Assembly: GCF_024721175.1 (NCBI RefSeq)
Contig: NZ_CP099402.1
Span: forward strand, 434,001 to 498,000
Direction of reading: 5' to 3'
DNA length: 64,000 nucleotides
Source: Rhizobium sp. Pop5
GTDB lineage: Bacteria; Pseudomonadota; Alphaproteobacteria; Rhizobiales; Rhizobiaceae
Shown here piece by piece: positions 1,951 to 20,604 of the stretch. The first letter of the stretch is position 1; every line of letters starts with the position of its first letter. The position numbers and the translations under genes are program-made. The notes beneath the pieces were generated by a model. It was given only the letters and a program-made list of their open reading frames with translations, was not told the origin of the DNA and searched no databases.

Positions 1951-1962
1951 GGAGCGCGACTT

Positions 1963-3145: not shown

Positions 3146-4597
3146 ATGGAATTGAAGGACGCAACATTGTTCCGGCAGGCCGCACTGGTGGGCGGCGACT
3201 GGATCGAGGCGGGCGACAACGCGATCAAGGTCGACAATCCGGCGACCGGCGAGATCCTCGGCCGGGTTCCCAACCTGGGGGCTGCCGAGACCAAGGCGGC
3301 GATTGCCGCAGCCGAGGTCGCGCAGAAGCAATGGGCTGCCAGCACTGCCAAGGAGCGCTCGGTGATCCTCCGGCGCTGGTTCGAGCTGATGATGGACAAT
3401 CAGGACGATCTCGGCCGCATCCTGACGGCGGAGCAGGGCAAGCCGCTCGCCGAAGCCAAGGGCGAGATCGCCTATGGCGCGAGCTTCATCGAATGGTTTG
3501 CCGAGGAGGCGCGGCGCGTCTATGGCGATATCGTTCCCGGCCATCAGAAGGACAAGCGCATCCTGGTGATGAAGCAGCCGATCGGCGTCGTCGCCGCCAT
3601 CACGCCCTGGAATTTCCCCAATGCGATGATCACCCGCAAGGCCGGACCGGCCTTTGCCGCCGGCTGCGCCATGGTGCTGAAGCCGGCCTCGCAGACGCCG
3701 TTTTCGGCAATCGCCATCGCCATCCTGGCCGAGCGCGCCGGTTTCCCCAAGGGCCTGTTCAGCGTGCTCACCGGCTCGGCGCGCGCCATCGGCGGCGAGA
3801 TGACCGCAAACCCCATCGTGCGCAAGCTGACCTTCACCGGCTCGACCGAGGTCGGCGCCGAGCTTTACAAGCAGAGCGCTCCGACCATCAAGAAGCTCGG
3901 ACTGGAGCTTGGCGGCAATGCCCCCTTCATCGTCTTCGACGACGCCGATCTCGATGCGGCGGTCGAAGGCGCTTTGATCGCCAAGTTCCGCAACAACGGC
4001 CAGACCTGCGTCTGCGCCAACCGGCTCTATGTGCAGGAGGGCGTCTATGACGCCTTTGCCGAGAAGCTGTCGAAGGCTGTGGGAACGCTGAAGACCGGCA
4101 ACGGCTTCGACGAGGGCATCAATCTCGGCCCGCTGATCGACGAGTCCGCCCTTGCCAAGGTCGAGGAGCATGTCGCCGATGCGCTGTCGAAGGGCGGCCG
4201 CGTCGTTGCCGGCGGTCATCGCCACCGGCTCGGCGGCCGTTTCTACGAGGCCACCGTGCTCGCCGACGTCACCCCTGCCATGGCGGTCGCCCGGGAAGAG
4301 ACCTTTGGGCCGGTGGCGCCGCTCTTCCGCTTCAAGGACGAGGCCGATGTCATCGCCCAGGCCAACGACACCGAGTTCGGCCTTGCCTCCTATTTCTACG
4401 CCAAGGATCTTGCCCGCGTCTTCCGGGTCGCCGAGGCGCTGGAATACGGCATGGTCGGCGTCAATACCGGGCTGATCTCGACGGCCGAAGCCCCCTTCGG
4501 CGGCGTCAAGCTCTCCGGCCTCGGCCGCGAAGGCTCGAAATACGGCATCGAGGAATTCACCGAAATCAAATATGTCTGCCTCGGCGGCATCGCCTGA
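3146..4597 (+). CDS. gabD: NAD(P)-dependent succinate-semialdehyde dehydrogenase
   Basis: A 483-residue soluble aldehyde dehydrogenase that oxidises succinate semialdehyde to succinate, the last step of the GABA shunt. The general base is Glu254 in LELGGNAPF and the catalytic Cys is Cys288 in [11 protein letters not shown]. The cofactor stretch [10 protein letters not shown] and the length (usual for GabD, about 480) fit, as does the end motif [30 protein letters not shown] leader gives a strong start. No aminotransferase (gabT) lies next to it, so it is a stand-alone copy. Related semialdehyde dehydrogenases, such as glutarate-semialdehyde enzymes, are hard to exclude by sequence alone. Confidence 0.88.
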
Positions 4598-4634: not shown

Positions 4635-4669
4635 GTCCTGCGCGTTCCCCTCAGCGGGGCGCGCAGGAC
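4635..4669. terminator. Bidirectional hairpin between convergent genes
   Basis: A perfect 10-bp stem, GTCCTGCGCG / CGCGCAGGAC, with an inner CCCC/GGGG pairing lies between gabD and the convergent lipase gene. It overlaps the lipase stop codon at 4651-4653. No strong T-tract is present on either side. Confidence 0.5.
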
Positions 4670-7548
4670 ATCCCTTCTCCGCTTTGCTTTGCCGCAAGAC
4701 CGTCGAGCAGTTCTTTCCAGTTTTCGTCGTGTTTTGCGACATTATCCTGCTGCGCCCAGGCCTTGACCGATTTTGCCGCATCGCCGTCCTCGAAGTTTTC
4801 CGCGACATCGCTGTGCAGCGCCAGGACGAGCGTTCCGACGTCCCGTGCAGACAGGATTTCGGTCTGCGACGGGTCCTCGGGATTGGTGAAGGACAGCGAG
4901 TTGGGAAGCAGCCAATGTGTACCGATCCCGCCGTCCCGGTAAACGCGCGGCATGGTGATCTCGTGGATGCTGACTTGCGAATGATGATCGCAGTAGAGCT
5001 TCTCGATCGCCGCGCGAAGCTCCGTCTCCAGCCCGAGACCGAGCTGACCGCCGGCGCCGAGCACCGAGCCGAAACCGAAGCTCTCGCTGTAACGGCCGGC
5101 CGAGGCCGAGACGTCGGCGATGACCACATGCAACGGCGGCAGCGCCTGCGAGGGCTGCGGCGCTGACCGGAAGGCATCGCGGATGGAATAGTAGAGCGTC
5201 ATGGCGCCACGGTTTTCGACTGCCCCGCCGTCGGTGACCCAATATCGTTTCCCCATTTGGCCGGGGGTCTCGATGTCGATCGCGGCATCGGGAAAGACCG
5301 GCGGAAAGTTTGCGCTGAGCGCCGCGGCACGCCCGATCGATATATCGGCATTGTCGAGCGTGACCAGTTGCATGTGAAGTGATCCGTCATCAGGCGGAGG
5401 CGCCGGCGCGGCAAGGTTGGTCAGCACCAGCCGCCCACCCGCCTGGGCGGCATCCAGGAACTGGCGGCATTGCGTCGCCTTCTCAGGCAGCGAGAGCGTC
5501 GGATCGACCTTGCAGAAAGGACTGTTGCCGGAAGAAGGGCGGTCGGCGGAAAAAGATCCGACGATCGCGGTGTTGAGCATCAGGCCGAAGGACGGGGCTT
5601 CCATCGTTGCAGCGCCCATCTCGCAGACGAAGGATTCGGAAAGAATGGCACCCAGCCTCGACCGTGCCGGGGTCCAGCCGTTCGTGGCCTGATCCACCGT
5701 CTTGGCTTCATGGCAGGCCGAGGATGCCCAGTGCCAGCGCCCGAAGGTGAAGCGGATGTCGCTCGCGGCGTCGATCACCTGTTCGATGAAGGGCAGCACC
5801 ATGGCCTGCGAAAAATCATCCCACGCCTTGACATTCATGCTGTCGCGCGGCCGGCGAAGCTCCTGCTCGTGAAGCGCGAAATAGCCGAGCGCGGCGCTGC
5901 CGCCCGAAACGCCGCTGACGAGGACGACGTTGCAGATCTGGTCATGTTCGGCGAGCCCGCGCAGCAGCGAGGCGGTGTAGATGGCCGCCCGCGTGCCGCC
6001 GCCGGAAGCGACGACGGCAATTCTCGGCGTGGTGGGCTGGAGGGCAGCGCAGCCGCCATTGGGCTCATCGCTTCCGAAGAGGAATGACGCCGGCTGCTTG
6101 GCCACATGCCGTTCGGAACGGATCGCAAGCTCCGGCGGCTGGATCGCCCACCAGAAGCTGAAGGCGGCGGGACCGCCGATCAGGAGATAGGCCACAAAGC
6201 CGACGAGGGCGGGATAGACGAGCGTCGAGCGCTGAAAATTGCGCAGGCTCGCAAGCAGGTCTCCTGCCGGAGCCTGATCGGCGGGCAGACGCTCCAGCTG
6301 CGCGCGAAACTGGGCGAGCACTTCCGCCGGCGTCATGAATTGGATCGCCCTGTTCGACGCAGCCTTGGTCTGCTGCTGGTATCGATCCTCGTAGCGGCCC
6401 TCGATCTTCAGGCGTCCCGCGCCGTGCAGCGCAATCGTCCGGCCCTGGTTCTGGACCGTGCTCAAGGTCTCGCTGCCTTCATAGTCGTAAGCGATTTCGA
6501 CAGGCGTGATCGCTCGGTGCTGCCTGTCCATCAGGCGCATGACCCGGCGCGCGACGAAGTGATCGCACCAGAAGGCGTAATACCAGGCGACGGCATAGGC
6601 GAAGACGATGTAGCGCATGATCGTCGTATTGCCGTAGCCTCCGGAGCCGGCGTTGAAGAGATAGGTGATGTAGTGGACGTCGGCGAGGCGAAGCACCGCG
6701 ACGACGATGACGAGAACGCTGATGACCCGCTGCGGGCCGATGAAGAAGAGGCGCCCAATCGTCTGCAGGATTTCCATCAGCCGGTCGAACAGGATGCCGA
6801 GGAAAAGGGCGATCCATGCGACGGCGGCGGTCACGTAGAAGGCGTAGCCGAGATAATGGTCCGGCACGAACAGGGTGAGCAGCGATCCGGGCAGAAGCAA
6901 CTCGACCGGATAGCGGATCGGCGCGATGAACAGGGCCGAGGCCAGCGCGGCGATCGGTCCCCGGCCCATGAAATCGTATCGGTTCTTGGGCAGAAAGAGC
7001 TCCACCTTCGGCAGACTGTCGGCAAGCCCGCCGCCCGCATTGGAGCGGAACAGGCTCGATGCGAGCAGCCAAGCCGCCGGGAGCGCGAGAACGAGCGCGC
7101 AGACGATCGCGACGCCGACATGCAGGCGGGGCCGCGCCGTCATCATGCCGTAGGTTTCCGGGCGCGAATTGATGAGAAGAAGCACTGCAAGGACCGCGAG
7201 GATGACCAGTTGTCCCGCCAGCAGATATTGGTTGAAGACGGGTCGCCGAACCGCCGCCGCATGCAGCAGGAAAAGCAGCACGACACCAATCACGAGCAGG
7301 CCGAGATTGCCCCAGCGCATGTTGATGGTCGGGCCGAGCGCCATGGCAAGCGTCAGAATGGCCGCCAGTAGCGGCACGAACCAGGCATAGCCATCGGGGG
7401 CGAGCCATCGCCAGGCGAGGCGTCGGTTTGGCGGCAGCGGCTGGTTCAGCCAGGCATCGAATTCGCGCCACCATCGAACGAAGCCCCGGACATGTTCGCC
7501 GAGCCAATTGTAGATGCTGATATCCCGATGGATGCGGTGTTCGTTCAT
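4651..7548 (-). CDS. Membrane-anchored patatin-like phospholipase
   Basis: A 965-residue protein with two parts. The first half carries several hydrophobic helices. The second half is a patatin-type serine hydrolase: oxyanion stretch GGGTRAA near residue 512, nucleophile Ser548 in GVSGGSA, and the dyad Asp773 in DGGAVEN. Such enzymes hydrolyse acyl esters of phospholipids or other lipids. I chose the ATG at 7548 (MNEHRIHRD) because GGAAA lies upstream and it begins 14 bases after the oxidoreductase stop; the same frame stays open further upstream only as a shadow of that gene. It is the last gene of the seven-gene operon with the three di-haem cytochromes. Its size is well above that of simple patatins (300-400 residues) because of the membrane domain. 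The substrate is unknown. Confidence 0.85.
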   Translation of the reverse strand: MNEHRIHRDISIYNWLGEHVRGFVRWWREFDAWLNQPLPPNRRLAWRWLAPDGYAWFVPLLAAILTLAMALGPTINMRWGNLGLLVIGVVLLFLLHAAAVRRPVFNQYLLAGQLVILAVLAVLLLINSRPETYGMMTARPRLHVGVAIVCALVLALPAAWLLASSLFRSNAGGGLADSLPKVELFLPKNRYDFMGRGPIAALASALFIAPIRYPVELLLPGSLLTLFVPDHYLGYAFYVTAAVAWIALFLGILFDRLMEILQTIGRLFFIGPQRVISVLVIVVAVLRLADVHYITYLFNAGSGGYGNTTIMRYIVFAYAVAWYYAFWCDHFVARRVMRLMDRQHRAITPVEIAYDYEGSETLSTVQNQGRTIALHGAGRLKIEGRYEDRYQQQTKAASNRAIQFMTPAEVLAQFRAQLERLPADQAPAGDLLASLRNFQRSTLVYPALVGFVAYLLIGGPAAFSFWWAIQPPELAIRSERHVAKQPASFLFGSDEPNGGCAALQPTTPRIAVVASGGGTRAAIYTASLLRGLAEHDQICNVVLVSGVSGGSAALGYFALHEQELRRPRDSMNVKAWDDFSQAMVLPFIEQVIDAASDIRFTFGRWHWASSACHEAKTVDQATNGWTPARSRLGAILSESFVCEMGAATMEAPSFGLMLNTAIVGSFSADRPSSGNSPFCKVDPTLSLPEKATQCRQFLDAAQAGGRLVLTNLAAPAPPPDDGSLHMQLVTLDNADISIGRAAALSANFPPVFPDAAIDIETPGQMGKRYWVTDGGAVENRGAMTLYYSIRDAFRSAPQPSQALPPLHVVIADVSASAGRYSESFGFGSVLGAGGQLGLGLETELRAAIEKLYCDHHSQVSIHEITMPRVYRDGGIGTHWLLPNSLSFTNPEDPSQTEILSARDVGTLVLALHSDVAENFEDGDAAKSVKAWAQQDNVAKHDENWKELLDGLAAKQSGEGMSCAPR

Positions 7549-7562
7549 GACGGTGTTTCCAC

Positions 7563-9356
7563 TCAGCTGTCGGCGAGAATGACGTCGGCCGCCTTCTCGG
7601 CGATCATGTAGACGGCGGTCGCGAGGAAGTAGCCGGGTATGCGGGGAAAGACGGAAGCATCGACGACGCGCAGGCCTTCGATGCCGTGCACCCGGAAGCG
7701 GCTGTCGAGCACGCCGCCGCGGTCCCGGGGGCCGATGGCACAGGTACCGCAGGCATGGTGACCCCAGGCGTTTTCGGCGACATAGCGGCGAAGCGCCTCG
7801 TCGCTCTCGTACTGCCGGCCGGGCTCCTCCTCGCAGGCGATGAGATCGTCCATCGCATCGTTGACCTTCCTGACGAAGCGGATGGCATGGACGACGGCGT
7901 CGAGGTCGAGGTCGCAATTGCCGTTTCCCTCGAAGAAGGAGTGAAACATGACTGCCGGCAAGGCAGCGGGATCGGTGCTTCTCAGCCGCACCGTGCCGCC
8001 CTGGTTTTCGGTGTAGGCCTTGAGGATCGCCCAGGTCATATAGTCCGGCTTGCGGATGCGCTCGGAATAGCCGGGATAATAGCCGCGGAAATCGGCCAGC
8101 AGCGAAAAGCAGTGCAGGTCCGGCTCGGTCAGCGTGTCGCGGGATTTCAGCGTCAGGGAAAACATGACGCCATTGCTGGTATAATTGCCGATGCGGAATT
8201 TGCGCCACCTGCGGTAATGGGCGTCGCGGTTGGTATAGGTCACGCCCTTCAGCGCCGACCAGGGTTCGTTCATCCGGGTGACGACGCCGACCTCGTAGCG
8301 GTCCTGCAGGTTCTGTCCGACGCCAGGCAGCGCTTCGACGACACGAATCTTGTGCTTCTTGAGATGGCCGGGATCGCCGATGCCCGACAGCATCAGAAGC
8401 TGCGGCGAGGCGAAGGTGCCGCCTGAGAGGATGATCTCGCGGCCGGCCCGGATGACTTCCTCGCGCCCCTCCCCGTCGACGCAGCGCACCGCCACCGCCC
8501 GCTTGCCCTCGAATTCGATGCGCGTGACCGTGGTGTTGAGGCGAAGCGTCAGGCGATCGGGGTGCCGCCTCATCACGTCCAGCAACCTCTCGCGCGGCCC
8601 GTGCCTGACGTGACGGCGCGTCGAAAGCGGCGTAACGCGCACGCCGCAGGCGCCGATGTTCCAGTTGCGATTGTCGTTCGGATCGACCTCGGTCGTCTCC
8701 CAGTCGGAGCCCCGCTTGCCGAAGGCATCGGCCGCAGCGCCGACACAGCGCAGGAGCGCCCGCCACAGCGGCCAATCGCGCAGGACCCTGAGCGGCAGCG
8801 CCCGCTCCGTCGTCATCCAGCCCCACCATCCATGGCCGGTCGGATTGAGGCCGGTTATGGCGGCAAGCCAGCGCCACAGGAAGAAGCGATAGCGACAGCG
8901 CTCGATGCGCTCGAAATAACCCTGCATGTGCGAGGCTTTCCAGCTTTCGTCGCCGGTGATCGCAAAAATGTGGTTCCAGTCGCAATGATTGGGCCGGACG
9001 ATGATCATCGCATGATGGGCGGTGCAGCCGCCGAGCCCGCGCACACGGGGATAAAGCACGCCGTCCTTTTCCTTGGAGTATCGCCAGTCGCGCTCCTGCA
9101 TTTCCTGATTTTCGTAGTGGCGCACCCAATGGTTCCCGGCCATCCCTGGATGTTCGGAGGCAAAGGCGTGAAAGGCCGGCACGCGGGAAGCATCGGCAAG
9201 CGGCATGTCGGAGCTGTCGTCCACCTTGGCGAGCGGATCGCCGCCGGCTTCGATGACGAGCACGGTGCGGCCTTCTTCGGCGAGCCGCGCGGCGACGACG
9301 GCGCCGCCCGCCCCGCTGCCGATGACGATATAATCGTGGATCGGCCCGCCGGACAT
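7563..9356 (-). CDS. GMC-family FAD-dependent oxidoreductase
   Basis: A 597-residue flavoenzyme of the glucose-methanol-choline family (cholesterol oxidase, choline dehydrogenase and fungal alcohol oxidases are relatives). The FAD fold is GSGAGG at residues 13-18, with the acidic strand end in VLVIEAGGD. The C-terminal catalytic region has His533-His534 in WGHHACGTC and the closing motif IPGYFLATAVYMIAEKAAD. There is no Tat or Sec signal, so it is probably cytoplasmic or membrane-associated. It starts 2 bases after the stop of the large di-haem cytochrome (TGACCATG), which suggests translational coupling, and the lipase follows by 14 bases. It probably oxidises an alcohol released or formed in the operon pathway (inferred). 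Confidence 0.88.
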   Translation of the reverse strand: MSGGPIHDYIVIGSGAGGAVVAARLAEEGRTVLVIEAGGDPLAKVDDSSDMPLADASRVPAFHAFASEHPGMAGNHWVRHYENQEMQERDWRYSKEKDGVLYPRVRGLGGCTAHHAMIIVRPNHCDWNHIFAITGDESWKASHMQGYFERIERCRYRFFLWRWLAAITGLNPTGHGWWGWMTTERALPLRVLRDWPLWRALLRCVGAAADAFGKRGSDWETTEVDPNDNRNWNIGACGVRVTPLSTRRHVRHGPRERLLDVMRRHPDRLTLRLNTTVTRIEFEGKRAVAVRCVDGEGREEVIRAGREIILSGGTFASPQLLMLSGIGDPGHLKKHKIRVVEALPGVGQNLQDRYEVGVVTRMNEPWSALKGVTYTNRDAHYRRWRKFRIGNYTSNGVMFSLTLKSRDTLTEPDLHCFSLLADFRGYYPGYSERIRKPDYMTWAILKAYTENQGGTVRLRSTDPAALPAVMFHSFFEGNGNCDLDLDAVVHAIRFVRKVNDAMDDLIACEEEPGRQYESDEALRRYVAENAWGHHACGTCAIGPRDRGGVLDSRFRVHGIEGLRVVDASVFPRIPGYFLATAVYMIAEKAADVILADS

Positions 9357-9358
9357 GG

Positions 9359-12145
9359 TCAGAACTGCTTCAGATAGGAAATCAGCGCATTCTTGTCCGA
9401 TTGCGTGAGATCGGCGCCGAAGGTGTGCCCACCATTGACGACGTAGTCAGGGCACTTGCTCAAGCCCACCAGGCGGTCGATCAGCTTGGTGTCGCGCACC
9501 ACCTTCTCGGCCTTCGCGAGTACGGCGGGATCGGCAAGCTCCTCCGGCGTGCATTGCCCGCCGAGTTCGGAAAAGGCCCCGATCAGCGCCGGGCCGTTGG
9601 CGATCAGGCGCTTATAATTGGCGAACTTGTCCTCGTCGTCATTGTCGGGAAGCAGCTCGGTATTGGTCAGCGCGTTGACCGGGAAACCGGCCGGGAACGG
9701 GCCGATGGTGATCGAACCGTCCTTCTTGAAGGCCCAGCCGGCGACCTTGTTGAGCACGCCGGTGAAGGGCTTCACCTTGTCGGGCACGAAGCCCGCCGGC
9801 ACGATGAGGCAGGAGGGGGCGCTTGTCCGGTAGATATAGCCGGGCACCGGCGCCTCGGTCACCCTGTCCATGCGGCGCGTCTGCGGCGAGAGCATCTGGC
9901 GGATCGACCGGTCGAAAACCCCAAGCCTGTTTTCGACGCAGGGCAGATAGGGATCGTCGGCGTTCGCCGCCGGGCAGGCCGTGTCGCGCCCGCCGTAGCC
10001 GCCGGCATAGTCCTGATTGTAGTAGTCGGTCCCGTAATAACTGTCCTCGTGGCCGACCGAATTGTTGAGCAGGAAGGGTGCCGTCGACCACAGGCTGACG
10101 AGGGAGGGCGGCCGGAGATAACCGCGGCCGTTGCCTCCCGCCTGCAGTGGGGTTGCCGCCCCCGAAACCGGATGATTGACCGTCACCTCATGCGGCGGAG
10201 GCAGCGATTTGTAGGTAGAGGAGGTGAAATTGTCCCAGATGTCGCCGGAAAGACCGTTGGTGGCGATGGCGCTGCAGGCATTGGTGCGCACGACATCCAT
10301 CGGCACGCGCCGCTCCGTCGAGAGATAATTGCCGTCTAGGAAATCCTTTCCATCGGCATCCTTTTCGGTGACGAGCTTGACCATGCCGGCCTTGAAGGCA
10401 TCCGACTGCGCCCAGGCCCAATAACGGTCCCAGCATTCGCGATAATGCGGGCCGGACCCGCCGCCTTCGCATATGCCTTGATCGACCCCGAGCTCCGGCG
10501 CCGGCACCGGCTGTTTGCTCGAATGGCAGGCCGCGCAGTTTTCGGCAAAGACGATCTTTCCGCGCTCGACCTCGGCCGGATCGCGCTCCGCAAGTACCTT
10601 TTCTCCGATCTCCGTGTCCTTGAGGTGATCGGCGCGGGCGGCGACCAGGAAGAAGATCGCCATGTCGGGCGTCATCGCTTCGGTCGCCTGCCAGTAGACC
10701 GAGTTCTTCTGGGCGTCGGCGATGCGGATCGGCGAGATCTTCTGCCCGCCGAGGAAGGGGCGGAAATGCAGCAGCCATTCCTCGCTGAACAGGCCGATAT
10801 TGAGATAGACGCGATTGAGCGCGCCGAGCGTGCCGACGGAATCGGCGCCGTCCTTCAGCACGCGCATGGAGGCAACCGTGCCCGTCGTCTTGTCATAGAG
10901 CGAACCAAAGGCCGCCGTCTGCGGATAGTCCTGCGCCTGCTTGTTGTCCTTCTCGTCTCCCTTGATGATTTCCTTGCCGGTCTTCGCTCCGATGCGCAGC
11001 CGCTCCAGCACGTCGTAGACGGCATTCATCGTGCGGGGATTGTTCATGTAGTCGCTCGAAACCAGCGAGGTATCAAGCGAACCCGGCGGGTTCGTATGGA
11101 AGAGCTGGAAGAGGAAATTCCCCTCGTTCTCGGCTGGCTGCCCGGCCGCCGCGCGCGGCCTGGTGTTCCAGAAGAAGATGCGATCGACCCAGAAATACTG
11201 GGCGCCAGGATTGGAGGAGATTTCGGAAAATTCCGGGCTTTCGACATTCTTCGGCGGGTTAATCGGATTGGGGCCGACATGGCAGAAGGCGCAGGACATG
11301 CCGACGCGATAAGGACGCACGAGATCCTTGTCGTTGTAGTAGGACGGATCGGTATAATAGCGCAGCGCATCCCAATGTTCGGCGGCCTTGCTGTCGAAGT
11401 CGGGATTGGGGAAGAGACGCAGGCCCACCACGCCCGTCGGCTCGCCGTAATAAGAACCGACCGGGATTTTCTTGTCTTCGCCCTTCACCTTGACCGTGGT
11501 GCCGCGCGAGCCGATCTGCACGCCGGGATAACGGGCATCGGCCTCGGCGTTGCCGCCGAAACTGTCGGCGGCGCAGTCCGTTTTGCGCTGATCGAGCCAC
11601 AGCCCCCAATGATTGGGATCGGCGCTCTTCGGGGCGTCGAAGCAAGGCTCGTTGACGAGCCCCAGATAGCGGAAGCGATTGTCGCGGCCATAGGCCATCG
11701 TCGGATAGGATGAAACGGTCTTCAGGAGGTCGAAGGAGCCGATCGTTGCCTTAGCAGCGAAATCCCAGAACTTGTCGTTGCCCCCGGTCCAGACGATCCA
11801 GGCATTCTGCCCGCGGATCGCCGCCTTGCGCACGGCCTCCGGATCGAGCCCGGTGGCGGTTGCGACTTCCTTGATCTCGGCGGGATAATCGGCGCCGGTG
11901 GCCGGCGGCAAGAGCAGACCCTTGTCCATCGCCGCGAAGTAAGGCTCGCCCGCCCCGGGAAATTCCTCGACCTTGCGATGGACTTTCTTTGCCTCATCCT
12001 CGACACGGCCGAACCGACTGGAATCCGGCTCGATCAGCCACCAGACGATGAGCGCAACCGCAGCAACGGCGACGACGGCGAGGGCGACGACGACCGCCAC
12101 GATCCAGGCGAGAAACCGCACGATGCGCTGTCTGACGTTTGCCAT
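9359..12145 (-). CDS. Large di-haem cytochrome c, RoxA-like (928 aa)
   Basis: One N-terminal hydrophobic anchor (about residues 8-32) puts a large domain in the periplasm. Two haem-c sites are seen: CAFCH at residues 285-289 and CAACH at 537-541. Towards the C-terminus, PPSLVSLWSTAPFLLNNSV matches the conserved tail region of RoxA-like and MauG/cytochrome c peroxidase-related di-haem proteins. The spacing of 252 residues between haem sites is longer than in the two smaller paralogues of this operon (223 and 218), and the protein is nearly twice their length. RoxA cleaves polyisoprene oxidatively; other relatives are peroxidases, so the reaction here is open. A GGAGGGG ribosome site precedes the ATG. 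Confidence 0.85.
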   Translation of the reverse strand: MANVRQRIVRFLAWIVAVVVALAVVAVAAVALIVWWLIEPDSSRFGRVEDEAKKVHRKVEEFPGAGEPYFAAMDKGLLLPPATGADYPAEIKEVATATGLDPEAVRKAAIRGQNAWIVWTGGNDKFWDFAAKATIGSFDLLKTVSSYPTMAYGRDNRFRYLGLVNEPCFDAPKSADPNHWGLWLDQRKTDCAADSFGGNAEADARYPGVQIGSRGTTVKVKGEDKKIPVGSYYGEPTGVVGLRLFPNPDFDSKAAEHWDALRYYTDPSYYNDKDLVRPYRVGMSCAFCHVGPNPINPPKNVESPEFSEISSNPGAQYFWVDRIFFWNTRPRAAAGQPAENEGNFLFQLFHTNPPGSLDTSLVSSDYMNNPRTMNAVYDVLERLRIGAKTGKEIIKGDEKDNKQAQDYPQTAAFGSLYDKTTGTVASMRVLKDGADSVGTLGALNRVYLNIGLFSEEWLLHFRPFLGGQKISPIRIADAQKNSVYWQATEAMTPDMAIFFLVAARADHLKDTEIGEKVLAERDPAEVERGKIVFAENCAACHSSKQPVPAPELGVDQGICEGGGSGPHYRECWDRYWAWAQSDAFKAGMVKLVTEKDADGKDFLDGNYLSTERRVPMDVVRTNACSAIATNGLSGDIWDNFTSSTYKSLPPPHEVTVNHPVSGAATPLQAGGNGRGYLRPPSLVSLWSTAPFLLNNSVGHEDSYYGTDYYNQDYAGGYGGRDTACPAANADDPYLPCVENRLGVFDRSIRQMLSPQTRRMDRVTEAPVPGYIYRTSAPSCLIVPAGFVPDKVKPFTGVLNKVAGWAFKKDGSITIGPFPAGFPVNALTNTELLPDNDDEDKFANYKRLIANGPALIGAFSELGGQCTPEELADPAVLAKAEKVVRDTKLIDRLVGLSKCPDYVVNGGHTFGADLTQSDKNALISYLKQF

Positions 12146-12157
12146 CGACCCCTCCAG

Positions 12158-13633
12158 TCAAAGTGTCTTGAGATAGGAAAGCAGCTGCTCCTTCGCCTCG
12201 GCAGGCAGATCCGTGCCCCAGACGTGGCCGCCATTGCCGTTGCCCGGAAGGCTCGTATCGTAGAGCGCGCCGTAGCGTTGCCCCGGCGTATCGGGGGCGC
12301 TCACGAAGCCGCCATTCTCGGCATCCACCAGATCGTAGCCACGGTAGAACTGTGTCGGCCGCTCGGCCGCCGGAAGCAGCAGCGCCCGCAATGTCGGGAC
12401 GCTGCCATTATGCAGGTAGGGACCGCGCAGCCACAGCCCCTTGAGACCCGTCGCGACATAACCGTCGGTCTTCTGGAAATTGGCAAAACCCCAGGCATAT
12501 CCAGGCTCGTAAACCGCGTAGCGGTCGCGGGCCGCGGGGCTCCACATGTCAAGGCGATGGCGGTCCGTGCCCACTTCGACGATCGAGATCGGCGTCCGGT
12601 AGCGCGCACCCTTGGCATCGTGGCAGACGGCGCACTGCGCGGCATAGATCGTCCGGCCGGCATCGACCGCTGCCGCATCGACATGATAGGGATCGCCTTC
12701 CGGCCTGAGCGGAGAAAAGGGCGACGGCGGCGGCCCCTGCAGGCGGACGAAATCCGTGATGCGGCGAAGGCCCTCTTCAGTGCCCGCGTAGGATTTATAG
12801 GTCATGCCATCGCCGATCGCGCCCGAGACCACCGTCTCGTAGAGATCGGTCTGCAAGCCGTCCCAATGCAGCGAGAAGCGGCGCGTATTGGTGGCCGTGA
12901 CATCGGCAAGAGACCAGAGCGGCATCATGTCGGAATTGCCGATCGTGTGGTCGTCGGCGAGATGCAGGTTCTGGAACTTGACCGGGTTGAAGGGATCGAT
13001 CCGGCCCGGACCCCAGTCCGGCCTGTCCTTCATCCAGGCGAAGCGCCGTCCCTGGTCCTGGAGAGCCGCCCGGGTCGCCGGGATCAACACGAAGCGATAG
13101 AGCGCCCGCTCCCAGAGCGGCATGTCGTAGATTCGGCCGATCTCCGTCAACACCCGGTCGGCGGTGAAGCGCGGATCGGCGCCGACATCGATCAGGAAGC
13201 GGATATAGGCCTGCGGATTGACCCGCGTTCCCGGCCCCGCATCGACCAGCCGCGCCGGTTCGTCGGCGCGCAGCCGGTAGCTGCCCTGATGGCAGAAGGC
13301 GCAGTTCGGCGCGACGCGCTCGATGACGCCGAGCGTCTTGACCGACAAGCCCACAGGAACCTCGTCGCCGGCGCGCCAGTAAAGCCCGAAGGCGCGGTAG
13401 CCATCCGCATTGGCCGGCAGATGGTCGGGAAAGAGCTGCGGCAGGACACGCCAGATCCAGTAGGGAATGCCCTGCGCTTCCTCATTGCCGATCGAACCGT
13501 GGTTGAAAACATCAGCGAGATCGTTCGTCTTCGGCTGGGCGACCGGCCGGAAAAGCAGGAAGAACAGCGCGAAGGCGCCGACGACGAGCAGGATCAGAAG
13601 TGCGAAAAGCCATTTCCAGAAGACGCGCCTCAT
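12158..13633 (-). CDS. Di-haem cytochrome c, RoxA-like (491 aa)
   Basis: The first 30 residues form a membrane anchor, followed by a periplasmic di-haem domain with CAFCH at residues 111-115 and CAVCH at 334-338. The tail PYLHNGSVPTLRALLLP is the conserved RoxA-like cytochrome motif and is nearly the same in the neighbouring 508-residue paralogue. The start MRRVFWKW overlaps the stop of the membrane-protein gene by ATGA; an open frame that continues upstream in the same frame is only a shadow of that gene. The role is inferred as peroxide- or oxygen-dependent oxidation of a hydrophobic substrate, or electron transfer between operon partners. Confidence 0.86.
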   Translation of the reverse strand: MRRVFWKWLFALLILLVVGAFALFFLLFRPVAQPKTNDLADVFNHGSIGNEEAQGIPYWIWRVLPQLFPDHLPANADGYRAFGLYWRAGDEVPVGLSVKTLGVIERVAPNCAFCHQGSYRLRADEPARLVDAGPGTRVNPQAYIRFLIDVGADPRFTADRVLTEIGRIYDMPLWERALYRFVLIPATRAALQDQGRRFAWMKDRPDWGPGRIDPFNPVKFQNLHLADDHTIGNSDMMPLWSLADVTATNTRRFSLHWDGLQTDLYETVVSGAIGDGMTYKSYAGTEEGLRRITDFVRLQGPPPSPFSPLRPEGDPYHVDAAAVDAGRTIYAAQCAVCHDAKGARYRTPISIVEVGTDRHRLDMWSPAARDRYAVYEPGYAWGFANFQKTDGYVATGLKGLWLRGPYLHNGSVPTLRALLLPAAERPTQFYRGYDLVDAENGGFVSAPDTPGQRYGALYDTSLPGNGNGGHVWGTDLPAEAKEQLLSYLKTL

Positions 13634-14061
13634 GCCTGCCTCCCTTCGGAGATGTTCTGTTCGAGCTTCAGGATGCGCAGGAGACAGAAGAGCGTCGCAA
13701 TGCCGATCGACCCGTCGAGGAAGACGCCGGCGAGATAGCCGATCGGCTGGCCGAAGACGAAGACGGCGAGAAAGAAGAAGACCGAACCGAGCGTGCGAGA
13801 GGGGAAGACCGCGAGCCAGGCGAACACGCGGTAGCGGTCGATATCGAGCGTCGCCGGGATGTAGAAGATCGACAGGATGCCGAGCAGCAGGCCGGCAAAT
13901 CGCGGCCAGATCAGTTGATTGACGGTGATGCCGAAGAGACCGAGGATCCATTCCGGGCAGAAGATGAGCGGCAGGACGAAGGCGAAGTTCAGAAGGATGC
14001 CGATCCAGACGAGGACCGCATGCCGTGCCTTCCATTTGCTGAGCGATCGCGACTGGGTCAT
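13630..14061 (-). CDS. Four-helix integral membrane protein of unknown function
   Basis: A 143-residue, very hydrophobic protein with about four membrane segments (for example FAFVLPLIFCPEWILGLFG and IGYLAGVFLDGSIGIATLF). I do not recognise a family. It overlaps the cytochrome genes on both sides by ATGA (4 bases each), so it is translated together with them, and it may be a membrane partner or quinone-side anchor of the cytochromes. That role is inference from position only. Confidence 0.8.
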   Translation of the reverse strand: MTQSRSLSKWKARHAVLVWIGILLNFAFVLPLIFCPEWILGLFGITVNQLIWPRFAGLLLGILSIFYIPATLDIDRYRVFAWLAVFPSRTLGSVFFFLAVFVFGQPIGYLAGVFLDGSIGIATLFCLLRILKLEQNISEGRQA

Positions 14062-15584
14062 AGGGTTTTCATATATTCGACGAGGGCGTCTTTTGCGGCA
14101 TCCGGCAGCTCGGTGCCGTAGCGATATCCTTCATGGCCGGCATTGCCGTTGCCGGGCCGGCTCGTGTCGTAGCGGAAGAGATCGCCGCCGGCCGACTGAT
14201 CCGAGCGATAGCCGACCTTGGCGAGATCGAACTCGTCGCTGCCGCGGAACCAGACGGAGGGCCGCTTCGCGCTCGGCTCGAGCAGATCGCGCAGGGTCGG
14301 CACCGAGCCGTTGTGCAGGTAGGGCGAGCGCGCCCAGATGCCGTCGAGCGGGTGATTGGCATAACCGTCGGTTTTGTGGAAGCGGTTGAAGCGCCAGGGA
14401 TAGCCGGCATAGAGCAGGTTCTGCTCGGCGGCGAAATTTTCCGTATAGGAGGTCCAGCGTCCGACATCGGTGCCGATCTCGGCGAGCGGCACGGTTTTGC
14501 CGAGCTGCGTGAAACGCTGCCTGTCATAGCTGTAGCCGTTCGCGTCCTTGAAGCCGTGGCAATCGGCGCAATAATGGAGGAACAGCATCTTACCCTGCGC
14601 CGCCTTCGCCTGATCGATCTTGGCTGCGGCCGGGAATTGCGGCGGCGGCAGATCCCACATCCAGTCCTCGATGCGGGCGATCGATGCCCGGTCGACCGTC
14701 ACGGGCGTCACCCCGGCGCCGAGTGCTGCGCTCAGGTTTCGTTCGGCGACGGAATCATTGTTGCCGTCCCAATGGAGGTTCATGCCCTCGCGCGGGCGCT
14801 GGCGCCAGATGGCGGGATAGTCGGAAGAACCGTTCAGCGCAGCACCCGATATATGGGCCTCGTCCATCGGAAAATTGAACTGCAACGCCTTGTAGGGATT
14901 GAACGTGTCGACGCGGCCCGGACCCCAATCCTCCTGGCGCTTGACGAAATCGAGCTGGGTGCCGAGGTCGAGGAAGGCACTCTTGACCCTCGGGAAAACC
15001 ACGTAACGATAAATCAGCCGCTCGAAAATATTGAGATCGCCGCCGACCTTGGGACTATCGATCGTCGCAACCAGCGCGTCCGCGGTAAAGCCCGGATCGC
15101 GGCCGACATCGATGAAGAAGCGGATGAATTCCTGCAGGCGCAGATTATTGGATGGCGCGCCGGGAATGAGATGGCGAACCGGATCGCCGGGCAGATGATA
15201 AGTGCCGACATGGCAGACGGAACAGTTGAGCCAGACCCGCTCGACGCCTGAGACCACGCGGCGCGACACCCCGATCGGAAGATCGTCATCCGGCTTTTCG
15301 TAGAGGAAACCGAAACGGCTCCAGCCTTCCGGCCCGAGCTTGTCGGCATACATGACCGGCAAGGCCTTGAAGACCCAATAGGGCGGTCCCGTCGCCGTCT
15401 CGCTGCCGATCGAGCCATGCATGAAATGATCGCTCTGGCTTTTGAAGGCGACGACATACTGGTTGACGAAAACCAGGTAGTAGACGACCGCCAGCAACAG
15501 CAGCACGACGATGGCCAGCCACCAGCGGCGGTGACGGGCGACGGCGATCTCGACGGGCGTCTTGCGGTCGTTGTCGCTGCTCAT
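14058..15584 (-). CDS. Di-haem cytochrome c, RoxA-like (508 aa)
   Basis: A signal anchor at about residues 19-42 (WLAIVVLLLLAVVYYLVFV) is followed by a periplasmic domain with CSVCH at residues 121-125 and CADCH at 339-343. The beginning (GSIGSETATGPPYWVFKALP) and the tail (SPYLHNGSVPTLRDLLEP) align by eye with the 491-residue protein two genes downstream, so the two are paralogues from a duplication. A strong GGAGGGG ribosome site precedes the ATG, and the gene starts 33 bases after the flavoprotein stop. The catalytic type (dioxygenase, peroxidase or electron carrier) cannot be settled from sequence. Confidence 0.86.
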   Translation of the reverse strand: MSSDNDRKTPVEIAVARHRRWWLAIVVLLLLAVVYYLVFVNQYVVAFKSQSDHFMHGSIGSETATGPPYWVFKALPVMYADKLGPEGWSRFGFLYEKPDDDLPIGVSRRVVSGVERVWLNCSVCHVGTYHLPGDPVRHLIPGAPSNNLRLQEFIRFFIDVGRDPGFTADALVATIDSPKVGGDLNIFERLIYRYVVFPRVKSAFLDLGTQLDFVKRQEDWGPGRVDTFNPYKALQFNFPMDEAHISGAALNGSSDYPAIWRQRPREGMNLHWDGNNDSVAERNLSAALGAGVTPVTVDRASIARIEDWMWDLPPPQFPAAAKIDQAKAAQGKMLFLHYCADCHGFKDANGYSYDRQRFTQLGKTVPLAEIGTDVGRWTSYTENFAAEQNLLYAGYPWRFNRFHKTDGYANHPLDGIWARSPYLHNGSVPTLRDLLEPSAKRPSVWFRGSDEFDLAKVGYRSDQSAGGDLFRYDTSRPGNGNAGHEGYRYGTELPDAAKDALVEYMKTL

Positions 15585-15617
15585 GGATCCCCTCCGGATG
15601 CGCGTGCGATGCGGGCC

Positions 15618-17003
15618 TCAATGGAAGGTCGGCGGTTCGAAAACCGACATGACCTGCTTGATCATCTCTCTGTAGCGATCCTCGAAGGTCGCCCCGTCGA
15701 ACCGGCTGAGGTCGTAACAGCCGAGCGGGTTTTCGAGATCGTTGAGCAGACACTTGTTGCAATAGGTACATTCCTTCTCCGGGCCGTTGGCCTGGGCGAG
15801 AATCTGCGGCAGATTATTGTTGGCGATCAGCGGGCGGGCCATGGTGACGCCGTCGCAGGCTCTCGAACGGATCGCCTCGGCGATCCTGTCGGCATGCTGG
15901 AAGCCGCCGGTACAGAGCACCTTGATATCGGAATCGATCTTGCCGATCGCTTCGGAGACGGCGCGGGCATAATCGAGATTGATGCCCTCGATGACCTTGC
16001 CCCGGCGCCAGCGCCAGAGCGCCTGGAAGGCGCGCCCGAGCACCGGATTGGAGAAGATCGCATAGTTCATCGGCGCCCGCGTGCCCTGCGAGAGCATGCC
16101 GTCATACCAGCGGTGGAGGTCTTCCAGCGGCAGGTCGCCGGCGGGATTGCGCGGATGCGGGAAGGTCGAGCCGCTCGAAACGTGGAAGGAGTCGACGCCC
16201 TTGCCGCCGTCGAGCAGCATCGTGCAGATCTTGACGGTTTCGTCGAGCGTGTTGCCCTTCTTGATCCACGGGTAGAGCCAGTCATTGTGGTCGACGCCGT
16301 TGATCTTCATCTGCAGGTGAAAATCCTGGCCGACCTCGCGGCGGATCGCCCTGACGATCTCGAGCACGAACCGCGCCCTGCCCTCCCAGCCGCCGCCATA
16401 TTCGTCCGTCCGGTCGTTGATGCCGGAGCTCAGGAACTGCGTCAGCAGATAGCCGTTGGCGCCGTGCAGCTCGACACCGTCGAGTCCCGCCTCCCGGGCG
16501 CGCCGCGCCCCCTGGGCAAACTGCTCCACCACCTCGGCGATCTCGGGCTTCGTCATCGCCTGGGCGAGCAGGCCATGGAAATAGTCGCTCTTGTCGGTCG
16601 AGCTCAGGCCCTTGTTGAACAGGTTCTCGACCCCGCCCATGTCCTGCTGGCGGCCGGAATGGCTGAGCTGCATGATGAACCGACAGTCATGGCTGTGAAC
16701 CCGGCGCCCGACCTCGCGCCAGAAGGGGATCTTGTCGTCGTTGTCGATCATAGCGTAACGCACGAGGATGCGGCCACGCACCGAGACCGGCGTGAAGGAG
16801 GAGATGATGCAGCCGATACCACCACGCGCGAACTTCTCCTCCCAGTTCAGCCGGGCATTCCCGCCATGACCGTTATAGTCGTCGAACTGGCCTGATATGT
16901 TCGATCGAAAGAGCCGGTTCTTGACCGTCAGCGAGCGAAATTTCAGCTCGTTAAAGATAAGCGCCGCGTTATCGGCATGGGTGAACTGGCTATCTGGATG
17001 CAT
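15618..17003 (-). CDS. NADH:flavin oxidoreductase, old yellow enzyme family with Fe-S-type cysteines
   Basis: A 461-residue FMN-binding TIM barrel related to 2,4-dienoyl-CoA reductase and old yellow enzyme. The stretch GLDGVELHGANGYLLTQFLS is the family hallmark. Near the C-terminus Cys412, Cys415, Cys418 and Cys429 form a C-x2-C-x2-C-x10-C cluster like the 4Fe-4S site of dienoyl-CoA reductases, but the protein ends soon after and lacks their C-terminal FAD/NAD domains. It would reduce an activated C=C bond. The start MHPDSQF is preferred, with GGAT-AGG upstream; a longer frame to 17180 has no supporting features. It is the first gene of the operon, so the promoter should lie just right of 17003. 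Confidence 0.85.
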   Translation of the reverse strand: MHPDSQFTHADNAALIFNELKFRSLTVKNRLFRSNISGQFDDYNGHGGNARLNWEEKFARGGIGCIISSFTPVSVRGRILVRYAMIDNDDKIPFWREVGRRVHSHDCRFIMQLSHSGRQQDMGGVENLFNKGLSSTDKSDYFHGLLAQAMTKPEIAEVVEQFAQGARRAREAGLDGVELHGANGYLLTQFLSSGINDRTDEYGGGWEGRARFVLEIVRAIRREVGQDFHLQMKINGVDHNDWLYPWIKKGNTLDETVKICTMLLDGGKGVDSFHVSSGSTFPHPRNPAGDLPLEDLHRWYDGMLSQGTRAPMNYAIFSNPVLGRAFQALWRWRRGKVIEGINLDYARAVSEAIGKIDSDIKVLCTGGFQHADRIAEAIRSRACDGVTMARPLIANNNLPQILAQANGPEKECTYCNKCLLNDLENPLGCYDLSRFDGATFEDRYREMIKQVMSVFEPPTFH

Positions 17004-17514
17004 GCAGGGCCTATCCGAATGTCGTGCCGAAGCAACGGGGAGAATAAAAAGCCGAAATGCAATGCGAGCGTTATAACTTCCAAGTGTGCTTGACGGTAAT
17101 GCAATCCTATGTGGTTTGCAAACGGATTTCAGCGCGCCTCCACAACTAAAAAAGTGTGCAGAAACAGTCATGCCTAACAACCCGTGAAGCGCCCGCGTGC
17201 ATCCCGCCGCTTAACCCAGGACAACCGGCTTTCCCGGTAGTATTTCGAGCCAGCAGGCAAACAACGCCGCCCATTTATCCCGGCACGACGCCCGTTCAGC
17301 GCCTTGAGATCAGTATTTCCGGATGGAACCGGTACCCCTGTCGATCGCCGCCGCCCGCTTGAAATCGGCGGCCTCCGCGGTGCTTGCGGACCAGCGGCGA
17401 CCAGCCTGATGTGATGGTTGCAAATTCTTCATGCGATCACTTTAGGGATGCATACGTCACTCCGTGCGCATGTCCCACGCCACTGGAATGACGAGACGGA
17501 AAGATAGGAAAACG
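17004..17514. other. Divergent intergenic region
   Basis: About 510 bases separate the flavoprotein operon (leftward) from the small secreted protein (rightward). Short open frames in it have no ribosome site or coding character. The leftward operon promoter must be here, and the AT-rich stretch near 17080-17160 is the likeliest place; I could not identify a convincing -35/-10 pair or a regulator box. Confidence 0.5.
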
Positions 17515-18141: not shown

Positions 18142-20604
18142 TTAGTACGACGTCGGCAGCAGATAGCCGGAGGGCGAGGGCAGGTCGATGACGGACCTGA
18201 CGTCGGCGGCATTCGCCGCCACGATCAGCTGATAGGTCCCCGCTTCGGCCCGGAAGGCGCCGGTCTCGATGTCGAAAAAAGCGAGATCGCGCGGGGTGAT
18301 CTTCAGCGTGGCCGTGCCGGTTTCGCCGGGCTGCAGCGAAAGCTTTGCGAAGGCGCGCAACTCCTTGTCCGGGCGTTCCACCTTCGCCTTCGGCGAACTG
18401 ACATAGAGCTGGACAAGTTCCGAGCCGGGCCGGTCGCCTATATTGGTGACGTCGATGCTGACGGTCACGCCTTCGGAACTCATTTCGCTCGCCGAGAGCC
18501 GCGGTTCGCTCCAGCGGAAGCGCGTGTAGCCAAGGCCGAAGCCGAAGGGGAAGAGCGGCTCGACGGCGCTGACATCGTGATGGCGGTAGCCGACGAAGAC
18601 GCCTTCGGCATAGCGCACATGCCCGTCCTTGCCGGGATAGACGGCGGCATCGCCTGTGATGGCGGAATTGTCGGAAAGCGCCTTCGGGAAAGTCTGCGGC
18701 AGGCGGCCGCCGGGCTCGGCATCGCCGAACAAGACGTCGGCGACGGCATTGCCGAGTTCCTGGCCGGGATACCACATCTGCAGCACGGCGCGGACCTTGC
18801 CGAGCCAGGGCATTTCGATGGGGCCGCCGGTCTGCAGCACGACGACGGTGTTGACGTTTGCGGCCGCCACCTTCTCGATCAGCTCCTCCTGGCGGCCCGG
18901 TAGCCGCATGTCGGGCAGATCAAGTCCTTCCGTGTCCCACTCGCCGTCGCGGCCGACGAAAAGAAGGGCCACGTCGGCATTGCGGGCCGTCTCGACCGCG
19001 GCCTCGATATCGGCCTCGCCGAGCGGCTTTTCGACGCCGAAACGGACGGCGATGAGATTGATCCCCTCCTCGCTCGCTGTGGACGGCTCATATTCTACGG
19101 TGATTTCGTAGGAACGGTCCGCTTCGAGCGTCATCGCGCCGCGCTGTTCGTCATTGGCGGTGCCGAAATAGTTCTCGCCGCGCGTCCAGCCCTCACGGCC
19201 GTCGACCGTGAGCTCGCCGTCGACGAAGAGCCGCGCCAGCCCGGCATTGGTCATGCCGAATACATGCTCGCCGGCCTCTTCCGGAGCAAACTGCATCGTC
19301 ATGCGGGCCGAGAAATCGGCGGGATCGAGTTCGCCTGACGGCAGCTCGAACCAGAAGAATTCGCCCTTGTCGACGATCTCGACATGGAGGGGATCGCCCT
19401 TGCAGCCGCGCCCCTTGAAATATTCGACTGCGATCTTGCCCTTGAACACGTCGATCAGGCGGTTATGGCGGCAGCCGACCGCGTGGCTGATGCTGTTGGC
19501 ATTGGAAAGAGCCGCGCGAATGCCTTCGAGCGGGCTCACCGTATAATGGGCGGCGATCTGCGCGCTGCCGCCGCCCATGACCCGGGCGCTCGCGGCATTC
19601 GGCCCGATGACGGCGATCCGGTCGAGCGAAGTCTTGGCAAGCGGCAGGATGCCATCATTTTTGAGGAGGACCGCGCCTTCGGCGCCGAGACGCCGGATCA
19701 GCGCCCGGTCTTCGGGCAGGTCGATCGCCCGTTCCGTGAGATCGGGTTTGCTTTTGAATGCGCCGACCCGCTCGAACAGCAGCAGCATGCGCCGGGCCGC
19801 CGCCCGCACAGTCGCTGCTTCCACCTTGCCTTCCCGCACGGCGGCAACGAGTTTTTCGCCGCGGTCGCGCGCCGGGCCTGGCATTTCGAGATCGAGACCG
19901 GCATTGATCGTCTCGGCGGTCGAATGCGAACCGAACCAGTCGGACATGACGATGCCGTCGAAGCCCCATTCCTCACGCAACACCTTGGTCAGCAGCCAAT
20001 GATGCTCGCTCGTATAGGTGCCGTTGAGGCGGTTGTAGGAAGACATGACGGCCATCACGCCGGCGCGGCGGACGGCCTGTTCGAAGGGCGGGAGGTAGAT
20101 TTCGCGCAGCGTTCGCTCATCGATGTCGGACGACATGGTCTGCCGCTCGATCTCGGATTCATTGCCTGCAAAATGCTTGATCGTTGCCGCGATCCCCTCG
20201 CCCTGCACGCCCTCGATATAGGCGACGGCGAGTTCTGATGTCAGCATCGGATCTTCGGAGTAACATTCGAAATTGCGCCCGTTGAGGCCGGAACGATGAA
20301 TGTTCACCGTCGGCGCGAGCAGTACGGCAGCACCCTTGCTCTTCGCCTGGCGCCCAAGCGCCCTGCCCATCTGCCTGATGAGATCGGGGTTCCAGCTGGC
20401 GCCGAGCGCGATGGCGACAGGAAAACAGGTCGCCTTGACGCCTGCGACCAGCGAACCGGCGCCGCGGGCGCCGTTCGGCCCGTCCGTGACCTTGATCTTC
20501 GGCACGCCGAGGCGCTCGACGGGAACGGTCGTCCAGAAATCGGCGCCTGATAGCAGCGAGACCTGCTCTTCGAGCGTCATCTTGTCGAGAATGGAATCGA
20601 TCAT
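18142..20604 (-). CDS. GH3 family beta-glucosidase with PA14 insert
   Basis: An 820-residue glycoside hydrolase. The N-terminal barrel contains the nucleophile Asp222 in GIVMSDWFGSHS; the second GH3 domain follows, interrupted by a PA14-like insert (around ADFSARMTMQFAPEEAGEHV), and a fibronectin-III-like tail closes it. Enzymes of this layout remove terminal glucose or xylose from plant-derived oligosaccharides or glycosides. No signal peptide is seen, so it probably acts in the cytoplasm on imported sugars. The start at 20604 follows a strong GGGAGG site; an open frame upstream to 20673 runs into the operator. It is divergent from a TetR regulator and shares the promoter region with it. Confidence 0.9.
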   Translation of the reverse strand: MIDSILDKMTLEEQVSLLSGADFWTTVPVERLGVPKIKVTDGPNGARGAGSLVAGVKATCFPVAIALGASWNPDLIRQMGRALGRQAKSKGAAVLLAPTVNIHRSGLNGRNFECYSEDPMLTSELAVAYIEGVQGEGIAATIKHFAGNESEIERQTMSSDIDERTLREIYLPPFEQAVRRAGVMAVMSSYNRLNGTYTSEHHWLLTKVLREEWGFDGIVMSDWFGSHSTAETINAGLDLEMPGPARDRGEKLVAAVREGKVEAATVRAAARRMLLLFERVGAFKSKPDLTERAIDLPEDRALIRRLGAEGAVLLKNDGILPLAKTSLDRIAVIGPNAASARVMGGGSAQIAAHYTVSPLEGIRAALSNANSISHAVGCRHNRLIDVFKGKIAVEYFKGRGCKGDPLHVEIVDKGEFFWFELPSGELDPADFSARMTMQFAPEEAGEHVFGMTNAGLARLFVDGELTVDGREGWTRGENYFGTANDEQRGAMTLEADRSYEITVEYEPSTASEEGINLIAVRFGVEKPLGEADIEAAVETARNADVALLFVGRDGEWDTEGLDLPDMRLPGRQEELIEKVAAANVNTVVVLQTGGPIEMPWLGKVRAVLQMWYPGQELGNAVADVLFGDAEPGGRLPQTFPKALSDNSAITGDAAVYPGKDGHVRYAEGVFVGYRHHDVSAVEPLFPFGFGLGYTRFRWSEPRLSASEMSSEGVTVSIDVTNIGDRPGSELVQLYVSSPKAKVERPDKELRAFAKLSLQPGETGTATLKITPRDLAFFDIETGAFRAEAGTYQLIVAANAADVRSVIDLPSPSGYLLPTSY

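What the first reader, a model, noticed from the sequence alone, without database searches (positions are those of the whole stretch)
4651..17003. Seven-gene operon joining three RoxA-like di-haem cytochromes, OYE, GMC oxidase and a membrane patatin
Seen: seven leftward genes with gaps of 33, -4, -4, 12, 2 and 14 bases, two ATGA overlaps, and an order of old yellow enzyme, 508-aa cytochrome, 4-helix membrane protein, 491-aa cytochrome, 928-aa cytochrome, GMC flavoprotein, patatin. Known: RoxA-like di-haem proteins oxidatively cleave polyisoprene, relatives are peroxidases, patatins free acyl chains, GMC enzymes oxidise alcohols and OYE reduces activated C=C bonds. Inference: a complete periplasm-plus-membrane route that attacks an unsaturated lipid, sterol/hopanoid or isoprenoid and handles the reactive enal/aldehyde products; it could instead produce an oxylipin signal in the plant-associated setting. 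I know of no described pathway with this set.
Basis: partly seen in the sequence, partly recalled or inferred. Interest (0 to 1): 0.8.

Follow-up and report, generated by a model that had tools for sequence, protein, structure and literature searches.

The report
Conserved lipid-oxidation operon in rhizobia
A block of seven neighbouring genes in a Rhizobium, six of which recur in the same order in distantly related bacteria, encodes haem and flavin enzymes that together look like an untested pathway for oxidising fatty-acid-like lipids.

The parts
15618..17003 (-). OYE: old-yellow-enzyme-type FMN oxidoreductase, 461 aa, no hydrophobic anchor; single OYE domain plus a C412-x2-C415-x2-C418-x10-C429 motif; ELHGANGYLLTQF substrate motif
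   Evidence: an iron-sulphur reading of the Cys motif is recalled, not tested
14058..15584 (-). cytA: di-haem c protein with N-terminal anchor, 508 aa, CxxCH at 121 and 339, H484 (RoxA H641 position), PYLHNGSVP, W272 (W302 position), H271 (F301 position)
   Evidence: (NF040606 211.5 bits, cut-off 150)
13630..14061 (-). TM4: small membrane protein, 143 aa, four to five hydrophobic stretches, no known family
12158..13633 (-). cytB: di-haem c protein with N-terminal anchor, 491 aa, 37% identical to cytA, CxxCH at 111 and 334
   Evidence: (NF040606 121.8 bits, below cut-off 150)
9359..12145 (-). cytC: large di-haem c protein with N-terminal anchor, 928 aa, CxxCH at 285 and 537, C-terminal VVNGGHTFG; RoxA motif altered to PFLLNNSVG
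7563..9356 (-). GMC: FAD oxidoreductase, 597 aa, no signal seen; WGHHA with H534; canonical second catalytic position is F577
4651..7548 (-). PAT: polytopic patatin-like lipase, 965 aa; GGGTR 516, GxSxG with S548, DGG with D774
17004..17130 (-). leader/promoter footprint conserved among Rhizobium loci whose further flanks differ (TTTGCAAAC, ATTGCATTA, GTTATAAC, GCATTGCATTTCGG)

Best explanation
A cell-envelope pathway that oxygenates fatty-acyl chains (oxylipin-type chemistry). Inferred steps: the patatin, where present, frees acyl chains; the two RoxA-like di-haem proteins, anchored to the periplasmic face, add oxygen to an unsaturated chain or convert a hydroperoxide; the large di-haem cytC works with the GMC flavoprotein as the core redox pair that oxidises or rearranges the alcohol/aldehyde product; the OYE reduces the activated C=C of the resulting enone/enal. 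TM4 may hold the anchored cytochromes together. Shown here: gene content, conserved order, haem and lipase motifs, cytA fold, recurring genetic linkage and a GMC-patatin fusion in three loci. Not shown: any substrate, product, location or activity. Other lineages pair cytC-GMC with other haem enzymes (alpha-dioxygenase-like, DyP-like, catalase-like), which is why I favour fatty acids over rubber, sterols or peroxide defence.
Against: No substrate evidence for this operon itself. 11 of 25 clusters show no accessory gene; the window-type patatin is missing from 10 of the 21 six-gene loci (one of these, L046, ends at its contig end). In Calothrix three annotated genes, one a transposase, lie between the alpha-dioxygenase and the GMC, and there is no cytC there. 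The 'catalase-like' label is weak: only the L041 copy has a Pfam match, below cut-off (24.0 against 25); the copies of L045, L067 and L072 have none. No alpha-dioxygenase-like gene is near the window; the one PF03098 match of the genome lies on another contig. The distal pocket differs from RoxA and PA2077/78 (His instead of Phe/Gln). GMC and OYE look cytoplasmic while the cytochromes look periplasmic, so hand-over is unexplained. Linkage is association, not function.
Confidence: 0.45

Rival explanations
1. A respiratory alcohol/polyol dehydrogenase: the GMC flavoprotein oxidises a soluble alcohol and hands electrons to c-type cytochromes, like gluconate 2-dehydrogenase; cytA/cytB are electron relays or peroxidases.
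For: cytC and GMC are the most constant pair (23 of 25 clusters, though those 23 were found with cytC); NCBIfam best GMC hits are choline dehydrogenase models, all ten hits below cut-off.
Against: No small-subunit family and no three-haem cytochrome in the operon; no visible signal on GMC and its second catalytic residue is Phe in 19 of 19 aligned; does not explain patatin fusion or alpha-dioxygenase-like neighbours.
Confidence: 0.21
2. Oxidative degradation of an isoprenoid, terpenoid or sterol for growth, RoxA-like cleavage first, then GMC/OYE processing.
For: Fold nearest RoxA; OYE and GMC enzymes also serve terpenoid and sterol pathways (established knowledge).
Against: RoxA/RoxB/RoxC models score 32-66 bits on cytA/cytB and 18.5 on cytC against cut-offs of 900-1000; F301 not kept; no CoA-dependent catabolic gene in the conserved block; patatins and alpha-dioxygenases point to acyl lipids.
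Confidence: 0.15
3. Peroxide or lipid-peroxide defence: cytA/cytB/cytC are peroxidases that remove H2O2 or lipid hydroperoxides, the others clean up reactive aldehydes.
For: cytA passes the NF040606 'di-heme-cytochrome C peroxidase' cut-off; invariant distal-side His; DyP-like and (weakly) catalase-like neighbours in other loci.
Against: Sporadic: 15 of 148 Rhizobium genomes have an orthologue, odd for housekeeping defence; fold nearer RoxA than peroxidases; alpha-dioxygenases make lipid peroxides rather than remove them (established knowledge).
Confidence: 0.13
4. A MauG-like protein-modifying system: the di-haem proteins oxidise a partner protein rather than a small molecule.
Against: No constant partner protein in the block other than TM4; lipid enzymes recur instead.
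Confidence: 0.06

Closest known systems
RoxA/RoxB rubber oxygenases (PDB 4b2n)
   Different: N-terminal anchor, shorter (491-508 aa) or larger (928); F301 replaced by invariant His; scores far below RoxA/B/C cut-offs; sits in a conserved operon with GMC/OYE
Pseudomonas aeruginosa PA2077/PA2078 oleate 10S-DOX / 7,10-diol synthase (FadCcp)
   Same: Neighbouring paralogous RoxA-like di-haem pair (43% identical there, 37% here), same motifs; activity on fatty acids would fit
   Different: PA proteins have 634 and 624 aa, Phe at the 317 and Gln at the 301 position; 'GMC' and 'flavin' do not occur in that paper
Plant and cyanobacterial fatty-acid alpha-dioxygenases (CalDOX)
   Same: Occur in the neighbourhood of the same GMC subfamily: with patatin in Calothrix, with cytC-GMC in Nitrosomonas and Granulosicoccus
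   Different: Not present in the window operon; different protein family (PF03098)
GMC oxidoreductases (choline dehydrogenase, aryl-alcohol oxidase, Manduca hexenal isomerase)
   Same: FAD and GMC domains, catalytic His
   Different: Second catalytic Asn/His replaced by Phe in 19 of 19 aligned; extra adjacent His

Membership tests
RoxA/RoxB/RoxC rubber oxygenase | two CxxCH haem sites | tested here: met
   cytA 121/339, cytB 111/334, cytC 285/537
RoxA/RoxB/RoxC rubber oxygenase | C-terminal His ligand (RoxA H641) | tested here: met
   cytA/cytB profile aligned to 4b2n 622-662; H484 in 26 of 26 rows; cytC VVNGGHTFG by eye only
RoxA/RoxB/RoxC rubber oxygenase | curated NCBIfam score | tested here: not met
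   best 66.2 bits (RoxC) against 900-1000
RoxA/RoxB/RoxC rubber oxygenase | distal F301 | tested here: not met
   cytA/cytB: His271, 26 of 26 rows; cytC could not be aligned here
RoxA/RoxB/RoxC rubber oxygenase | distal F317 | tested here: inconclusive
   aligned column has Leu 16, Ile 8, Val 1, Phe 1 (the L043 cytA) of 26, in a weak stretch of 15.7 bits
RoxA/RoxB/RoxC rubber oxygenase | overall fold | tested here: met
FadCcp (PA2077/PA2078) | PYFHNGSVP-type motif and two haems | tested here: met
   PYLHNGSVP in cytA/cytB; not in cytC (PFLLNNSVG)
FadCcp (PA2077/PA2078) | common clade with PA2077/PA2078 | not tested
FadCcp (PA2077/PA2078) | fatty-acid oxygenase or diol synthase activity | not testable with these tools
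   needs assay
di-haem cytochrome c peroxidase subfamily NF040606 | curated score 150 bits | tested here: inconclusive
   cytA 211.5 met; cytB 121.8 and cytC 36.7 not met
GMC oxidoreductase | FAD and C-terminal domains | tested here: met
   PF00732, PF05199 above cut-off
GMC oxidoreductase | His plus Asn/His catalytic pair | tested here: not met
   H534 kept; second position F577 in 19 of 19 aligned; the pair itself is recalled knowledge
patatin-like phospholipase | GxSxG serine and DGx aspartate | tested here: met
   S548, D774; PF01734 43.4 bits, cut-off 27.7
gluconate 2-dehydrogenase type GMC-cytochrome complex | small subunit and three-haem cytochrome | tested here: not met
   no such family among the seven; cytochromes have two CxxCH; defining features recalled
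old yellow enzyme family | Oxidored_FMN domain | tested here: met
   PF00724 170.4 bits, cut-off 27

The most novel reading that the evidence does not exclude
A widespread, horizontally moving bacterial oxylipin system with an exchangeable design: a constant redox pair (giant di-haem cytC plus an atypical Phe-site GMC) is coupled in different lineages either to a RoxA-like di-haem pair with OYE and TM4 (this window) or to alpha-dioxygenase-like, DyP-like and catalase-like haem enzymes, with a patatin supplying acyl chains; in rhizobia it would make or remodel plant-active fatty-acid signals.
Probability: 0.28. Interest if true: 0.8.

Novelty: new variant of a known kind. Interest (0 to 1): 0.57.

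Why it matters
It would be a bacterial counterpart of plant and animal oxylipin pathways, encoded as one movable operon, and would give a function to a large family of di-haem proteins (6570 relatives of cytC at E up to 0.001 among the 7998 candidates scored; the window protein itself passes no Pfam or NCBIfam cut-off). It links the few characterised RoxA-like enzymes (rubber, oleate) to a conserved genetic setting. R. johnstonii 3841 carries the operon on pRL11, so deletion and lipidomics can be done in a standard laboratory symbiont.

Tried and rejected
Rejected: chance gene order; anti-phage defence (no PADLOC hit for any of the seven); cytA as an ordinary peroxidase. cytC as a clear RoxA homologue is not shown: RoxA comes only at E 0.021 with a 29-row profile; profile-profile comparison with cytA/cytB aligned 37 columns round one haem site; no Foldseek hit at E 0.001. 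It still looks like a remote relative because shorter relatives in L077-L079 have APFM(H/L)NNA(V/I)GPE and end near (K/A)GHRFG.

Led nowhere: PDB search with the catalase-like protein (0 hits); locus-tag paper search (0 papers); gene-set paper searches (0 papers; 8 listed; 19 listed; 3 listed; 20 of 35 listed) showed no title or abstract start on this set; the octadecanoid review held no passage on the terms asked (300,000 of 522,781 characters held). Promoter scan: 5 sites against 2.2 expected, none in the leader. Caspase-domain proteins near L041 and L081 were not pursued.

Bias and dropped rows: 23 of the 25 clusters were found with cytC, so its 23 of 25 is by construction; L080 and L081 came from a GMC search. 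One search used loci of 11 kb or more; L021 was dropped as a duplicate of L029; patatin hits under 150 aligned residues and OYE hits under 300 bits were dropped; accessory genes were sought by tblastn at E 1e-8 with a few queries, so more remote ones can be missed. Seven loci without a GMC hit were listed apart (L042, L070, L071, L076-L079). The 19 GMC sequences are a selection from the loci with a GMC (39).

Full report
What is there. The window lies in a Rhizobium genome (nearest records are mostly Rhizobium). Pfam and NCBIfam: OYE PF00724; cytA and cytB PF21419 RoxA-like_Cyt-c; GMC PF00732/PF05199; patatin PF01734; TM4 and cytC no family above cut-off. Each cytochrome has two CxxCH and a hydrophobic N-terminal stretch that reads as a membrane anchor; OYE and GMC show none; TM4 has four to five and the patatin seven to nine hydrophobic stretches (a simple hydropathy scan, not a signal predictor).

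Conservation. A genome scan with cytC gave 25 loci. All six of OYE-cytA-TM4-cytB-cytC-GMC in the same order and strand: 21 of 25 (L024-L041, L044, L046, L047); identities 47-99% over the six genes. L042 has five and ends at its contig end; L043 has cytC-GMC-cytA-cytB followed by a different patatin; the two Nitrosomonas MAGs (L045, L048) have only cytC-GMC of the six. A near full-length patatin of the window type is in 11 of 25. Patatin is decaying in places: S. fredii has it in two reading frames, L028 keeps 53 residues and L027 a 72-base remnant. The annotated records of R. johnstonii 3841 pRL11 and S. fredii pSF45436e show the same order.

Spread. cytC matches 19 of 148 Rhizobium genomes, 15 of them (own included) full-length at 90% or more, the other four distant. 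With the profile at E 1e-20: 3 of 297 family genomes, 7 of 385 class genomes, 2 of 155, 6 of 39 and 1 of 4 genomes round other hits; of 397 phylum genomes 17 pass 1e-3 and, by the printed E-values, 6 pass 1e-20. Long flank matches to the window occur in 2 of 9 Rhizobium loci with long flanks (L024 R. vallis, L026 R. pisi); six others share only 125-132 bases upstream of the operon, L040 none at E 1e-10. With the plasmid records this reads as a cassette that moves.

Other forms of the locus. I pooled loci of 11 kb or more and grouped their GMC proteins at 80% identity: 25 clusters from 39 loci. cytC 23 (by construction), six-gene core 12, cytA/cytB 13, patatin 10, catalase-like 4, DyP-like 3, c16 (unknown) 3, alpha-dioxygenase-like 3, any of these five accessory kinds 14. 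Accessory genes are commoner where the six-gene core is not complete (10 of 13 clusters) than where it is (4 of 12), which suggests alternative modules; L041 and L042 have both. In L023, L073 and L074 GMC and patatin lie in one frame of 1562, 1539 and 1537 aa. Labels: the patatins scanned pass the Pfam cut-off except L023's (26.6 against 27.7); the DyP-like protein reaches it in L042 and only just in L045; the catalase label rests on a below-cut-off match of the L041 copy alone. The home genome has three patatin matches, this one included, so a patatin within 10 kb of a given gene is expected about 1% of the time in such a genome.

Alpha-dioxygenase link. The Nitrosomonas neighbour's best solved relatives are plant alpha-dioxygenases (E 4.7e-56; next a lactoperoxidase at 2.9e-4). 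On a Calothrix sp. PCC 6303 plasmid a GMC 41% identical to the window's is followed, with a four-base overlap, by a patatin; about 2.5 kb upstream, past three annotated genes of which one is a transposase, lies a PF03098 enzyme. That enzyme hits plant fatty-acid alpha-oxidase at E 9.5e-121 and has 16 of 16 checked residues that PMC8720084 names for CalDOX of Calothrix parietina (passages read; check). CalDOX acts on C10-C14 fatty acids and gives aldehydes (same passages). The Nitrosomonas and Granulosicoccus proteins keep the THDW and VYRLH motifs. The catalase-like proteins of L045, L048, L067 and L072 share TKTHG; that Thr-His marks catalase-related allene oxide synthases is recalled, not tested, and L041 lacks the His.

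GMC. In 19 of 19 aligned relatives, from Rhizobium to Calothrix, the motif is WGHHA and IPG(Y/F/L)F; the alignment to 8b7s puts F577 on the Asn where GMC enzymes usually have the second catalytic Asn/His (that role is recalled knowledge). A moth GMC enzyme is a hexenal isomerase (PMC10307781, passages), so non-oxidase GMC chemistry on enals exists; a link to this one is speculation.

What I conclude. Observation confirmed; interpretation partly supported. The most economical reading is a fatty-acyl oxygenation pathway with a constant cytC-GMC pair and exchangeable oxygenase parts. The main rival, a GMC dehydrogenase feeding c-type cytochromes, is weakened but not excluded. That I found no description rests on ten searches of an open-access library, of which 43, 58, 89, 103 and 104 combined terms for this gene set; for those five only listings were seen, in 104 20 of 35 papers; subscription papers were not searchable.

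Noticed in passing
L077-L079 (unnamed alphaproteobacteria of two families; L076 alike by its hits): A version without a GMC hit: a cytC-like 817-850-aa protein, a protein of about 306 aa, in L078/L079 also a 520-548-aa protein with a CxxCH, then cytA- and cytB-like genes.
   Followed up: partly
L022:13595-16484; L028:14601-14759; L027 near 14649-14719: The patatin gene is split between frames in S. fredii and reduced to remnants in Rhizobium sp. BK316 (53 residues) and L027 (72 bases): the lipase seems dispensable.
   Followed up: partly
L081 (Microvirga lotononidis plasmid): Phe-site GMC without a cytC hit, preceded by a 582-aa protein of no Pfam family and followed, after a 299-aa protein, by a caspase-domain protein.
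   Followed up: partly
L045:5819-7123; also L042, L048, L067, L072: c16, an unknown protein of about 420-434 aa next to the DyP-like gene in each of these five loci; the L045 copy has no Pfam or NCBIfam hit, the L042 copy no Pfam hit.
   Followed up: partly
window 17004-17130: Leader with short palindromes TTTGCAAA and GTTATAAC and repeated TTGCA, conserved among ten aligned Rhizobium sequences: a possible regulator site.
   Followed up: partly
window 41-2760 and 3146-4597: ABC-transporter-like genes and an aldehyde-dehydrogenase-like gene (by eye) convergent with the operon; the latter is shared with the L024 and L026 flanks.
   Followed up: no
window 18142-20673 and 20725-21438: Beta-glucosidase-like and TetR-like genes (by eye) upstream of the operon; not part of the conserved block.
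   Followed up: no
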